This document shows, one piece after another, positions 4,808 through 15,896 of a stretch of DNA of 64,000 bases. The DNA comes from Bradyrhizobium canariense (lineage in GTDB: Bacteria > Pseudomonadota > Alphaproteobacteria > Rhizobiales > Xanthobacteraceae). Under the pieces are notes generated by a model. It was given only the letters and a program-made list of their open reading frames with translations. It was not told the origin of the DNA and searched no databases. Location of the stretch: the NCBI RefSeq assembly GCF_900105125.1, contig NZ_LT629750.1, positions 124,001-188,000 on the forward strand, written 5' to 3'. The first letter of the stretch is position 1. Every line of letters begins with the position of its first letter. The position numbers were made by a program, and so were the translations under genes.

Positions 4808-4850
4808 CGTCGACTCGACGTCATTCCGGGGTGCATGCTTCACACTCTTC

Positions 4851-4938
4851 CGTCATGGCCGGGCTTGTCCCGGCCATCCACGCCTTCCTTCGTGCTGAAA
4901 AAAAGACGTGGATGCCCGGCACAAGGCCGGGCATGACG
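4851..4938. repeat. Intergenic palindromic repeat, family A, copy 1
   Basis: An 88-bp imperfect palindrome. It begins CGTCATGGCCGGGCTTGTCC and ends GCCGGGCATGACG, with ACGTGGATG / CATCCACG internal arms. Copies 2 and 3 are at 14171-14257 and 15811-15896. It sits between the binding-protein gene and the first permease, so it is probably transcribed and could form a stable RNA hairpin that sets the ratio of binding protein to permease. Confidence 0.85.
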
Positions 4939-8356: not shown

Positions 8357-8486
8357 TTTCTTTCGTCATTCCGGGGCCGCGAGTGAACCGAGCGAACTCG
8401 GAATCTGGCATTAGGCGTGATGCCGGGCCGGCGTCTTCGGCGCATCCCGGACTGACTTTGAGATCGTTTTCGAGGGAGTGAACACC

Positions 8487-9605
8487 ATGCAAAGAACCAA
8501 AGCCCCGTTCCGCGCCGACGAGGTCGGCAGCCTGTTGCGGCCGCCGCGCATCAAGGAAGCGCGCGCCAGGCTCGAGAAGGGGGAGATCACGGCTGCCGAT
8601 CTGCGCAAGGCCGAAGACATGGAAATCGAGAAAGTCGTGCACCGGCAGGCCTCGACCGGTCTGAAGCTGGCGACCGACGGTGAATTCCGCCGCTCCTGGT
8701 GGCATTTCGATTTTCTCGCAAAGCTCACCGGCTGCGAATTGTTTCACCCCGACGAAGGCATCCAGTTTGCCGGCGTGCAGACCCGGCATGATGCCATCCG
8801 CGTCACCGGAAAGCTGGATTTTCCCGCCGATCATCCGATGCTGGATCACTTCAAGTTTCTGAAGAGGCAGTGCGATATCGCCCATGTCACGGCGAAGATG
8901 ACGATCCCGTCGCCGGCCGTGCTGCATTTCCGCGGCGGCCGCAAGCTGATCTCGAAAGAAGTATATCCCGATCTCGAAGTGTTCTTCGAGGATCTCGGCA
9001 AAACCTATCGCAAGGCGGTCAAGGCTTTTTACGACGCCGGTTGCCGCTATCTGCAATTCGACGACACGGTGTGGGCCTATCTCTGCTCGCAGGATGAACT
9101 GAGGAAGTCGCGCGAGCGTGGCGACAATCCTGACGGCCTGCAGGAAATCTATGCCCGCATCATCAACTACGCGATATCAGAGCGGCCGGCCGATATGGTG
9201 ATCACGACCCATGTCTGCCGTGGCAATTTCCGTTCGACCTGGATTTCGTCCGGCGGCTACGAGCCGGTGGCGGAGACCATGCTGGCCGGCACCAATTACG
9301 ACGGCTATTTCCTGGAATATGATTCCGACCGCGCCGGTGGCTTCGAGCCGCTGCGCTATTTGCCGAAGGGCAACAAGATCGTGGTGGTCGGCGTCATTAC
9401 CTCCAAGACCGGCGCGCTCGAGAAAAAAGACGACATCAAGCGCCGGTTGGAAGAGGCGGCCAAGTTCGTGCCGCTCGAACAACTCGCGCTGTCGCCGCAA
9501 TGCGGCTTTGCCTCCACGGAAGAGGGCAACATCCTCAGCGAGGAAGAACAGTGGGCGAAATTGAAGCTCGCGGTCGACGTCGCGAACGAGGTGTGGGGGA
9601 AGTGA
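8487..9605 (+). CDS. MetE-like zinc-dependent methyltransferase family protein
   Basis: 372 residues, equal to only the C-terminal catalytic half of MetE. The start is placed at ATG 8487 because CGAGGGA lies 10 bp upstream; GTG 8478 has no room for a ribosome site. Zinc-ligand candidates are His242 and Cys244 (TTHVCRGNF) and Cys339 (LSPQCGFAS), the arrangement used by cobalamin-independent methionine synthase and by epoxyalkane:coenzyme M transferase. It probably activates a thiol as a zinc thiolate; the methyl donor or electrophile is unknown. It lies 130 bp after the ABC cassette on the same strand, so it may act on the imported compound. Confidence 0.85.
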   Translation: MQRTKAPFRADEVGSLLRPPRIKEARARLEKGEITAADLRKAEDMEIEKVVHRQASTGLKLATDGEFRRSWWHFDFLAKLTGCELFHPDEGIQFAGVQTRHDAIRVTGKLDFPADHPMLDHFKFLKRQCDIAHVTAKMTIPSPAVLHFRGGRKLISKEVYPDLEVFFEDLGKTYRKAVKAFYDAGCRYLQFDDTVWAYLCSQDELRKSRERGDNPDGLQEIYARIINYAISERPADMVITTHVCRGNFRSTWISSGGYEPVAETMLAGTNYDGYFLEYDSDRAGGFEPLRYLPKGNKIVVVGVITSKTGALEKKDDIKRRLEEAAKFVPLEQLALSPQCGFASTEEGNILSEEEQWAKLKLAVDVANEVWGK

Positions 9606-9641: not shown

Positions 9642-9723
9642 CGTCATTGCGAGGAGCGTAAGCGACGAAGCAATCCAGACTGCCTGTGTGGTCCTGGATT
9701 GCTTCGTCGCGCTCGCAATGACG
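9642..9723. repeat. Palindromic repeat, family B, copy 1 (intact)
   Basis: Left arm 9642-9680 starts CGTCATTGCGAGGAGCG and ends GACGAAGCAATCCAG; right arm 9694-9723 runs CTGGATTGCTTCGTCGCG then CTCGCAATGACG. The arms are reverse complements except for an 8-base bulge on the left, separated by a short loop. The second copy, at 10072-10228, has the same orientation. The two flank the GIY-YIG gene. Confidence 0.9.
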
Positions 9724-9750
9724 GCGTGATCGCAACGCGCGCCCGTCGAC

Positions 9751-10038
9751 CTATGCCAGCGTTTCGTAGAGGTCTTTCCATTGAGGATTGAGGCCTTCAA
9801 TCAGAGCTAGTTTATCCGCCCGGCTCCCAGCCTTAATCTGCTTCTCGCGCGTAATGGCTTCGATCATGCTGTCGTGAAGTTCATACCAGACAAGTATCTT
9901 GCAGCTATATTTTGCTGAAAAACCCTTGGCCAACCCTTCGCGATGTTCGAAAGCACGTTTCGGCAAATCGGACGTAACGCCTGCGTAAAGCGTTCCGTTG
10001 CGGCGGCTTGCCATGATGTAAACGCAGGGTTGCTTCAT
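9751..10038 (-). CDS. Small GIY-YIG nuclease family protein
   Basis: 95 residues. The start at ATG 10038 gives MKQPCVYIMASRRNGTLYAG, placing the GIY-YIG pair (here VYI and LYAG) at the usual position; the TTG five codons upstream is less likely. Conserved Arg and Glu follow in KRAFEHREG, and YSCKILVWYE and AITREKQIK match the YhbQ/UPF0213-like single-domain subfamily. GIY-YIG proteins cut DNA with a metal ion; these small ones have no attached DNA-binding domain and their role is poorly known. It is flanked on both sides by the same palindromic repeat, with 27 and 33 bp gaps. Confidence 0.88.
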   Translation of the reverse strand: MKQPCVYIMASRRNGTLYAGVTSDLPKRAFEHREGLAKGFSAKYSCKILVWYELHDSMIEAITREKQIKAGSRADKLALIEGLNPQWKDLYETLA

Positions 10039-10071
10039 CGGAGTTACTGCCAATACGCTGGTATATTACCG

Positions 10072-10228
10072 CGTCATTGCGAGGAGCGACAGCGACGAAG
10101 CAATCCAGACCGCCTGTGTGGTCCTGGATTGCACCGCGAAGCCTTTCATCGGTCGGCGCGTTGCCCCGATCCGTTGGCTCACCATGAGGATATGATAGCC
10201 TACGCAGATCCCGTCGCGTGCAATGACG
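10072..10228. repeat. Palindromic repeat, family B, copy 2, split by about 80 bp of other sequence
   Basis: Bases 10072-10132 match the left arm, loop and first part of the right arm of copy 1. The end of the right arm reappears at about 10211-10228 (CGTCGCG then CAATGACG). Between them is unrelated sequence. The last repeat base abuts the ribosome-binding site GAGAGGGG of the monooxygenase gene at 10238. Confidence 0.75.
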
Positions 10229-10237
10229 AGAGGGGAC

Positions 10238-11368
10238 ATGACACCAAGCCCTGACGCGATCATTGTCGGCGCCGGCCCCGCGGGGCTTGCTTGCGCCGCT
10301 ATGATACGCGCGGAGGGGCTCAACGTGATGGTGCTGGAAAAGGCTGACAGCGTCGGATCGGTTTGGCGTCGCCATTACGATCGGCTGCACCTGCATTCAG
10401 ACCGCAAACATTCTGGTTTGGCCGGCATGGAAATGCCGCGGACCTATCCGCTGTATCCATCTCGCCAACAGGTGGTCGAATATCTCGAAAGCTACGCCGC
10501 ACGCTTCGACATCCGCCCGGTTTTCAATATGGCGGTGTCGTCGGTTCGGCGCGACGGGGTGCAGTGGCGCGTGGAGGCCGGTCACACCTCGATGGCCGCT
10601 CCCGTGGTAGTCGTTGCAACAGGTCTTGCCGACGCACCCTATCGTCCGTCATGGCCGGGGTTGGAGACCTATCAAGGATCGGTCGTTCACAGCAGCGAAT
10701 ATCGCAACCCGACACCGTATGCGGCAAAGCGTGTGCTCGTTGTCGGCTTCGGCAATTCCGGCGGTGAGATCGCGCTCGATCTCACCAGTGCCGGCGTCGA
10801 TGTCGCGCTGGCGGTTCGCGGCCCCGTTCAGGTCTTGCCGCGCGATCTCCTGGGTTTTCCGATCGTGGCATGGGCGATCTTATATCGGCGCCTGCCTGCG
10901 CGGCTGGTCGACCTGATCAACGCGCCGGTGTTGCGGCTCGCTTTGGGTGATATCGAAAAGCTTGGATTGCGCCGCGCGGCGAGAGGGCCGCTGCAAATGA
11001 TCGAAGAGAACGGACGCGTGCCGCTGATCGATGTCGGCACGCTGGACAGGATCAGGGATGGCTCCATCAAAATATACGGTGCCATCGACCGCCTTGCGTC
11101 CGATAGCGTCGTGTTTGCCGATGGCAAGAACGAAAAGTTCGACGCGATCATTCTGGCGACCGGCTTCCGCCCCGATCTGCGCCGCTTGATGCCGGACGTG
11201 GAAGACGTGTTCGACAAGCATGGCATGCCGCTGGTGACCGGGCGGGCGACCAGCGCGCCCGGTCTCTATTTCTGTGGCCAGATCACCGCGGCGACCGGAC
11301 AATTTCGCGAGATCGGACTTGAGGCGCAGCGGATCGCGGAGAGCGTGAAGGGCTATGTGAGAAAATAG
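10238..11368 (+). CDS. Flavin-containing monooxygenase family protein
   Basis: 376 residues from ATG 10238, which has GAGAGGGG just upstream; ATG 10223 lies inside the repeat and lacks one. The FAD-binding GAGPAGLA loop is near residue 12, a second dinucleotide (NADPH) loop VVGFGNSGGE is near 170, the class-B monooxygenase-like fingerprint YQGSVVHSSEY precedes it, and the ATG motif ILATGFRPD is near 310. The small size and single-subunit architecture fit the YUCCA/FMO-like group, which oxidises N, S or C atoms, including tryptophan-derived acids in some organisms. The substrate is not predictable. It stands alone, with a palindromic repeat immediately upstream. Confidence 0.85.
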   Translation: MTPSPDAIIVGAGPAGLACAAMIRAEGLNVMVLEKADSVGSVWRRHYDRLHLHSDRKHSGLAGMEMPRTYPLYPSRQQVVEYLESYAARFDIRPVFNMAVSSVRRDGVQWRVEAGHTSMAAPVVVVATGLADAPYRPSWPGLETYQGSVVHSSEYRNPTPYAAKRVLVVGFGNSGGEIALDLTSAGVDVALAVRGPVQVLPRDLLGFPIVAWAILYRRLPARLVDLINAPVLRLALGDIEKLGLRRAARGPLQMIEENGRVPLIDVGTLDRIRDGSIKIYGAIDRLASDSVVFADGKNEKFDAIILATGFRPDLRRLMPDVEDVFDKHGMPLVTGRATSAPGLYFCGQITAATGQFREIGLEAQRIAESVKGYVRK

Positions 11369-14133: not shown

Positions 14134-14170
14134 TTGTGTATTTGAGTAGGACGCCGCGACATACATAAGC

Positions 14171-14257
14171 CGTCATGGCCGGGCTTGTCCCGGCCATCCA
14201 CGTCCTTCTTTTGTAGCGGCCAAGACGTGGATGCCCGGCACAGGGCCGGGCATGACG
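14171..14257. repeat. Intergenic palindromic repeat, family A, copy 2
   Basis: Nearly the same 5' part as copy 1 (CGTCATGGCCGGGCTTGTCC) and the same closing GCCGGGCATGACG. It occupies half of the 184-bp metK-ahcY gap and would form a hairpin in a joint transcript. Confidence 0.85.
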
Positions 14258-14317
14258 AGACATTGCAGACCCCTTCGTATGAACGGTCGTTCGAGCGAAG
14301 ATAAAGGAACCCATTAC

Positions 14318-15748: not shown

Positions 15749-15810
15749 GCTTTTAAATCGTTATTCCGGGTTCGCTCGCTCTGCTGGCGTCCCGGAATTA
15801 CGCAATATTT

Positions 15811-15896
15811 TGTCATGCCCGGCCTTGTGCCGGGCATCCACGTCTTTAGAGTCGGTGTGAGCAGACGTGGATGGCCGGGACGAAGCCTGGCCATGG
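15811..15896. repeat. Intergenic palindromic repeat, family A, copy 3 (opposite orientation)
   Basis: Begins TGTCATGCCCGGCCTTGTGC and ends with GGCCATGGTGG, so the two arm types are swapped relative to copies 1 and 2. The ahcY side carries a further small dyad around TTCCGGG / CCCGGAA at 15764-15797. Confidence 0.75.

What the first reader, a model, noticed from the sequence alone, without database searches (positions are those of the whole stretch)
9642..10228. Small GIY-YIG nuclease gene bracketed by two copies of one palindromic repeat
The gene for a 95-residue GIY-YIG protein lies between an intact palindrome (9642-9723) and a second copy in the same orientation (10072-10228). The ends are 27 and 33 bp from the gene. 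The repeat has strand-exchangeable arms CGTCATTGCGAG and GACGAAGCAATCCAG. A dedicated nuclease next to its palindromic repeats would parallel the known REP/RAYT pairing, but with a different enzyme class. The link is my inference from position.
Basis: partly seen in the sequence, partly recalled or inferred. Interest (0 to 1): 0.72.

Follow-up and report, generated by a model that had tools for sequence, protein, structure and literature searches.

The report
Nuclease gene with its own repeats
A small DNA-cutting enzyme gene sits between two copies of a palindromic repeat, and related bacteria pair each version of the enzyme with its own version of the repeat, which points to a dedicated enzyme for a repeat class once reported to have none.

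Summary
Confirmed and extended. The repeat is a head-to-head dimer of a CGTC-tagged REP, a superfamily reported in 2013 to lack a dedicated transposase (PMC3733652). The 95-residue GIY-YIG gene belongs to a subfamily that neighbours such repeats far above chance: a REP unit within 150 bp on both sides in 39 of 72 usable loci, against 2 of 792 other ORFs in the same loci; 11 of 28 in a second sample. Within the genus, nine REP types need 8 changes on the nuclease tree, the fewest possible (shuffled mean 54.6). Same-type elements at unrelated sites stay alike up to the tag in 213 of 294 flank pairs (null 5.6%). Against: copy number follows the nuclease for two of four REP families, not for the window's own. 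Best reading: a REPtron-like unit with a GIY-YIG nuclease. I recall, but could not read, a 2025 paper on 'Ssn' GIY-YIG single-strand nucleases acting on Neisseria repeats; a Neisseria homologue (59.6% identity) lies in such an array. So the pairing is probably a new member of a known kind; movement as a unit is the newer, inferred part.

The parts
9642..9723 (+). Intact palindrome: head-to-head dimer of a CGTC-tagged REP (family A: CGTCATTGCGAG...GAAGCAATCCAG and its inverted partner)
   Evidence: features of CGTC REPs from PMC3733652
9751..10038 (-). GIY-YIG nuclease gene, 95 aa from the ATG at 10038 (ORF open to a TTG at 10053, 100 aa)
10072..10132 (+). Second REP copy, same orientation, 95% identical to 9642-9702
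   Evidence: D7
10133..10190 (+). Degenerate right half of the second copy, resembling a longer dimer variant in relatives (L161, L169); end approximate, read by eye
8478..9605 (+). Context: left neighbour, Meth_synt_2 domain gene; its end is followed by different REPs or none in relatives
10223..11368 (+). Context: right neighbour, FAD/NAD-dependent monooxygenase-like gene (true start may lie a few codons in); directly next to the left gene in five relatives

Best explanation
The gene encodes a GIY-YIG nuclease whose cognate substrate is the CGTC-tagged REP beside it. REP units with their CGTC tags outermost plus the nuclease gene form one evolving unit, like the REP/RAYT 'REPtron' but with a GIY-YIG enzyme. 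Likely working: the palindromes fold into hairpins when the DNA is single-stranded (replication, uptake), the nuclease cuts at or next to the CGTC tag, and occasional re-joining moves either the whole REP-gene-REP unit or, more often, the short gene-less dimers, which outlive the enzyme. SHOWN: bracketing above chance, matching of nuclease and repeat types, homology ending at the tags, presence or absence of the unit between related species, conserved catalytic residues. INFERRED: that this enzyme cuts this repeat, that it does so on single strands and at the tag, and that cutting drives movement. I put the enzyme-repeat link alone at about 0.93 and movement driven by the enzyme at about 0.5.
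For: Both-side bracketing 39 of 72 versus 2 of 792 control ORFs; 45 of 72 versus 14 of 741 without any repeat definition; unit density 9.6 and 10.5 per kb within 50 bp versus about 0.12 and 0.14 per kb at 2-10 kb; second sample 11 of 28. Own genome: all three genes of this subfamily are bracketed, each by a different REP family. Type matching: 8 changes, the minimum, shuffled mean 54.6; Mantel 0 of 999 permutations as high. Homology ends at tags in 213 of 294 flank pairs, null 5.6%. Tags outward in 62 of 79 two-sided loci, outermost units. Sites with and without the unit. Y7, G20, R28, H32, E65, N84 invariant in 44 members.
Against: Copy number does not follow the nuclease for families A and D. 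In the window the gene lies between two dimers, not between the two halves of one, and family A reaches only 10 of 26 tag-matched ends. 33 of 72 named loci and 17 of 28 in the second sample are not bracketed on both sides by the CGTCAT detector. No target duplication and no exact empty site was established. No biochemical test.
Confidence: 0.65

Rival explanations
1. Homing into existing REPs: the dispersed dimers arise by another route, and the GIY-YIG gene is a homing endonuclease that invades dimers of its own family by cut-and-repair. The REP is then the target, not the moved end.
For: GIY-YIG enzymes include classical homing endonucleases (general knowledge); 13 of 44 members match a group I intron endonuclease model weakly. 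Homology ending at the tags is also expected if the flanking halves belong to a dimer already in place. Nine of 29 relatives have a family-A REP, without the gene, at the window site.
Against: Several gene-less relatives at the L002 site have 9-14 bp and no REP (L314, L317, L318, L321), so there the REPs are as absent as the gene. In the window the gene does not split a dimer.
Confidence: 0.2
2. A stationary nuclease and its sites: the enzyme processes single-stranded DNA or hairpins at REPs (for example during DNA uptake or replication) and is kept near a few REPs by selection; REP spread is due to other enzymes.
For: The recalled Ssn work describes effects on natural transformation rather than transposition (recalled, not read). 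Many REPs persist without a cognate gene. The B1 gene is at one orthologous place in 36 of 146 genus genomes.
Against: Same-type elements at unrelated places with homology bounded by the tags, near-gene remnants and stop-bearing copies, and patchy presence (41 of 200 phylum genomes) look like mobile DNA.
Confidence: 0.15
3. Coincidence or hitch-hiking: REPs are abundant between genes, and the gene simply happened to land there.
For: REPs are common (59 family-A units in the own genome by the looser pattern) and lie mostly downstream of genes (PMC3733652 abstract).
Against: Other small ORFs in the same loci are bracketed in 0 of 123 cases; chance cannot give the type-by-type match.
Confidence: 0.02

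Closest known systems
Ssn family of GIY-YIG single-stranded nucleases and their repeats (Chenal, Veyrier and colleagues, Nature Communications 2025; RECALLED, not held, nothing of it seen)
   Same: As recalled: small GIY-YIG enzyme, cuts repeats present in many copies, thousands of homologues each with its own sequence. A Neisseria gonorrhoeae homologue 59.6% identical to the window protein lies in an array of dRS3-like repeats.
   Different: As recalled it is framed as a nuclease that modulates transformation; I found no held paper that ties it to the CGTC-REP superfamily or to movement as a unit. Activity of the window enzyme is untested.
CGTC-tagged REPs, including dRS3 and RPE-4/RPE-6 (PMC3733652; abstract, sections 6 and 8 and passages read)
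   Same: CGTC tag, stem beginning AT, CCA tail, head-to-head dimers, Bradyrhizobium among the hosts.
   Different: That paper reports no associated transposase and does not mention GIY-YIG (0 occurrences).
REP/RAYT REPtrons
   Same: An enzyme gene flanked by its own REPs, with type-matched pairs.
   Different: RAYTs are tyrosine (HUH) transposases with GTAG REPs; here a GIY-YIG nuclease with CGTC REPs.
UPF0213 / UvrC / Slx1 GIY-YIG domains
   Same: Fold: best solved relatives are UPF0213 1zg2 (profile E 3e-6; Foldseek E 7e-4), then Slx1 and UvrC domains.
   Different: Only 19-25% sequence identity in the structural matches; no REP association was tested for them here.
Br-REP1 of Bradyrhizobium (PMC5082802; passages read)
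   Same: Its consensus CCGGAATCTCGAGATTCCGG is the centre of the B1 dimers that bracket the own genome's L002 nuclease.
   Different: Described there as a repeat only; GIY-YIG is not mentioned (0 occurrences).

Membership tests
CGTC-tagged REP superfamily | Terminal CGTC (or TGTC) tag next to a stem beginning AT | tested here: met
   definition in PMC3733652 section 6
CGTC-tagged REP superfamily | Short tail fitting CCA | tested here: met
   ...GAAGCAATCCAG in the window and in the pattern matches
CGTC-tagged REP superfamily | Predominantly head-to-head dimers | tested here: met
   All 13 close pairs in the list are (+,-) with tags outward (my count)
CGTC-tagged REP superfamily | Stem of 8-9 bp with a 4-5 nt loop within each unit | tested here: inconclusive
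   The single family-A unit folds only weakly (-4.2 kcal/mol, 57 of 200 shuffles as good); the dimer folds strongly. PMC3733652 notes odd loops in Bradyrhizobium CGTC-1.
Ssn nuclease family (definition recalled) | Stand-alone GIY-YIG domain with the catalytic residues | tested here: met
   which residues are catalytic is general knowledge
Ssn nuclease family (definition recalled) | Homologous to the Neisseria enzyme | tested here: inconclusive
   59.6% identity over residues 3-91 to a Neisseria gonorrhoeae ORF; that this ORF is the published Ssn is my inference
Ssn nuclease family (definition recalled) | Gene next to its multi-copy repeat | tested here: met
Ssn nuclease family (definition recalled) | Site-specific cutting of single-stranded DNA | not testable with these tools
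REP/RAYT REPtron | Tyrosine (HUH) transposase gene flanked by GTAG REPs | tested here: not met
   The gene is GIY-YIG and the tag is CGTC
Mobile element bounded by the REP tags | Homology between copies at unrelated sites ends at the tags | tested here: met
   213 of 294 flank pairs, null 5.6%; family A only 10 of 26
Mobile element bounded by the REP tags | Empty site equal to the rejoined flanks, with or without target duplication | tested here: inconclusive
   L311 has 18 bp of joined tag ends in place of 589 bp; relatives too distant to tell insertion from loss

The most novel reading that the evidence does not exclude
CGTC-REPs are the ends, or the non-autonomous derivatives, of a widespread class of mobile elements whose mover is a roughly 95-residue GIY-YIG nuclease: a second, independent counterpart of REP/RAYT with a different enzyme. 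Nuclease clades and REP families diversify together, and a second, distant GIY-YIG subfamily does the same with a longer CGTC-tagged repeat.
Probability: 0.45. Interest if true: 0.85.

Novelty: new member of a known kind. Interest (0 to 1): 0.66.

Why it matters
CGTC-REPs, including Neisseria dRS3 and Rickettsia RPEs, occur in several phyla and in 2013 had no known enzyme. A dedicated nuclease with one repeat type per clade gives each repeat family a testable partner, suggests where new repeats come from, and offers many natural enzyme/target pairs for learning how a tiny GIY-YIG protein reads a hairpin. If the unit is mobile, it is a transposon-like element run by a GIY-YIG nuclease.

Tried and rejected
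Coincidence and hitch-hiking were rejected. Rfam gave only miRNA matches far below their gathering scores. PADLOC gave no family for the two proteins scanned. NCBIfam gave none for the window protein; 13 of 44 members match a group I intron endonuclease model weakly. The phage collection had no match at 1e-5. My first unit detector demanded [CT]GTCAT and missed several genus clades and the Sphingomonas loci; reading flanks showed stem-loops with a CCA-like tail but other letters after the tag, or another tag. Those loci stay negative. 'Copy number tracks the nuclease' failed for families A and D. The L003 site search gave no informative empty site. No target-site duplication was established. 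Literature searches (listings and abstract starts seen; capped lists) showed no paper linking GIY-YIG genes to CGTC-REPs; the library lacks many papers, including the one I recall.

Full report
OBSERVATION. The window lies at 124001-188000 of a single-contig 7.84-Mb genome. Its nearest named relatives are Bradyrhizobium; the genus name is my inference. The left repeat, 9642-9723, is an intact palindrome. The second copy, from 10072, is 95% identical over 61 nt and then degenerates. Between them a minus-strand ORF (9751-10053; 95 aa from the ATG at 10038) carries a GIY-YIG domain (PF01541, E 7e-13).

THE REPEAT. It fits the CGTC-tagged REP superfamily of Di Nocera et al. (PMC3733652; abstract, sections 6 and 8 and passages read): CGTC tag, stem beginning AT, CCA tail, head-to-head dimers. 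[quoted passage not shown] The own genome has 52 exact matches to one family-A pattern and 0 to the reversed control, 59 to a slightly looser one. All 13 close pairs in the list have tags outward (my count).

ENRICHMENT. The own genome has five PF01541 loci. The three of this subfamily are all bracketed on both sides, each by a different REP family: A at the window, B1 at L002, B2 at L003. The other two (L001, another subfamily; L005, probably UvrC by its 693-aa frame) showed no such unit in the scans made (L001; L005: only). REP units lie at 9.6 (left) and 10.5 (right) per kb within 50 bp of the gene, and at about 0.12 and 0.14 per kb at 2-10 kb. In the 72 of 79 loci with enough flank, 39 genes are bracketed on both sides and 54 on at least one, against 2 and 66 of 792 other ORFs of 80 aa or more in the same loci (small ORFs: 0 and 12 of 123). 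A test that names no repeat (an exact word of 14 nt or more shared by the two 200-bp flanks) gives 45 of 72 against 14 of 741 controls, and 86 of 102 in the relatives' set. A second sample, drawn across the phylum, with unchanged detectors (29 loci after leaving out the own one, 28 with enough flank) gives 11 both sides, 19 any side, and 10 of 28 by the shared-word test. Two of those 29 (L349, L354) are genes already in the relatives' set; both are negative, so without them it is 11 and 19 of 26.

COGNATE PAIRING. In 34 genomes of the genus I used 79 loci (L115 dropped as a duplicate of L002, L181 as overlapping L129; weak hits under 80 bits set aside). Each of the 79 carries at least one of nine REP types within 220 bp; the types were written after seeing the flanks, and three loci with both C and G were called C. 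On the protein tree the nine types need 8 changes, the fewest possible, with a shuffled mean of 54.6 and 0 of 200 as low; seven types are one side of a branch, C and F need two changes each; with 94 columns many forks are weak. After removing 234 of 3081 pairs with homologous outer flanks, pairs from different genomes with at least 80% protein identity share flank repeats in 99% of 82 cases, and pairs under 55% in at most 1% of 1515; Mantel rho 0.36, 0 of 999 permutations as high.

UNIT BOUNDARIES AND PRESENCE/ABSENCE. For same-type elements at unrelated sites, the outer end of homology falls within 3 bp of a tag in both copies in 213 of 294 flank pairs, against 5.6% for shifted ends; pairs are not independent, and family A reaches only 10 of 26. 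In one clear pair, L141 and L144, homology runs from CGTC to GACG and no further. Outermost units within 150 bp point their tags outward in 62 of 79 two-sided loci (17 of 21 named, 45 of 58 relatives); for the nearest units it is 41 of 79. At the window site none of the 29 other loci read (of 146 genomes searched) carries the nuclease. Nine of them carry a family-A REP there by a simple expression; six were called B-like, one of which (L173) is a false call inside the next gene; 14 had neither by that expression, though L150 and L169 hold variants by eye. Five (L147, L159, L163, L165, L173) have the same right-hand gene with 28-67 bp between the homologous parts, against 617 bp in the own genome. 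At the L002 site 36 of 146 genomes, own included, hold the gene, intact or broken, in place (my count of spanning rows). Of 18 gene-less sites read, L311 keeps 18 bp of fused tag ends (CGTCATTCCAGAATGACG) where the own genome has 589 bp; L314, L317, L318 and L321 have 9-14 bp and no REP; others hold unrelated or other repeat DNA. In Azospirillum lipoferum the gene with REP dimers sits between sufB and sufC.

RESULTS AGAINST. Over 36 genus genomes, REP copy number is higher with an intact cognate nuclease for family E (median 31 versus 4, one-sided p 0.001) and B2 (33 versus 9, p 0.026), but not for the window's family A (134.5 versus 107, p 0.46) or D (23 versus 26, p 0.33); p values are not corrected for four tests. 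Two genomes without a subfamily member at 80 bits or more (G008, G024) have 182 and 139 family-A units. Remnants of cognate genes account for some high-copy exceptions (G004 for E; G007 and G019 for B2; G012 for A). Families A, B2 and E have 0 exact matches in all 24 genomes outside the genus; D occurs in 4 of them.

THE ENZYME. Y7, G20, R28, H32, E65 and N84 are invariant in 44 aligned members and Y18 nearly so; their catalytic roles are general knowledge. The AlphaFold model is confident (pLDDT 96.4); the nearest solved folds are UPF0213, Slx1 and UvrC GIY-YIG domains. 41 of 200 phylum genomes hold a member at E 1e-15 or better: patchy, as for accessory or mobile genes.

WHAT IS KNOWN. I recall a 2025 Nature Communications paper (Chenal, Veyrier and colleagues) on Ssn, a GIY-YIG family that cuts single-stranded DNA at repeats in Neisseria, with many homologues each acting on its own sequence. 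It is not held and I saw nothing of it. A Neisseria gonorrhoeae homologue, 59.6% identical to the window protein, lies in an array of CGTCATTCCCGCG...GCGGGAATC repeats (16 matches with up to 2 mismatches in 3.3 kb; sequence). So the enzyme-repeat link is probably already known in Neisseria, and the window pair is a new member of that kind. What I found in no held paper, by the searches listed, is the tie of this nuclease to the CGTC-REP superfamily as a whole, the type-by-type matching, and tag-to-tag units.

VERDICT. How the unit moves is inferred; homing into existing REPs and a stationary nuclease remain live rivals.

Noticed in passing
L249-L254 (also L248): A second, distant GIY-YIG subfamily (34-42% identity to the A1 proteins) is also flanked by a palindromic repeat, a longer CGTC-tagged one (CCGTCATCCTGAGG...CCTCGAAGGATGA), clearest in L250, L251, L252 and L254; 6 of 10 loci under 80 bits share a word of 14 nt or more between flanks.
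   Followed up: partly
window 4850-4937, 14170-14266, 15802-15891: Other CGTC-type palindromic units (family D, ATGGCCGGGCTTGTCCCGGCCAT and relatives) lie in the window; the own genome has 21 exact family-D units but no family-D nuclease among its three members.
   Followed up: partly
L078, L091 (Sphingomonas): Loci scored negative by the CGTCAT detector still show stem-loops with a CCA-like tail on both sides of the gene, with a different tag.
   Followed up: no
L328 1140-1960 (Sinorhizobium meliloti pSymB): A 3' remnant of the nuclease gene lies just upstream of the intact gene, with copies of one CGTC repeat between and around them.
   Followed up: no
L001 (own genome, 5413508-5413723): The fourth small GIY-YIG gene has two copies of a different repeat of about 80 bp on one side only.
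   Followed up: no
L144 (G007), outside the tags: The bases outside the tags form an inverted repeat (cacactc / gagtgtg), as if the element sat inside a palindrome; PMC3733652 reports CGTC dimers inside palindromes in H. neapolitanus.
   Followed up: no
NZ_CP119140.1 and NZ_CP119142.1: Two 2.17-Mb Neisseria gonorrhoeae records, the size of a chromosome, are filed as plasmids in the plasmid collection.
   Followed up: no
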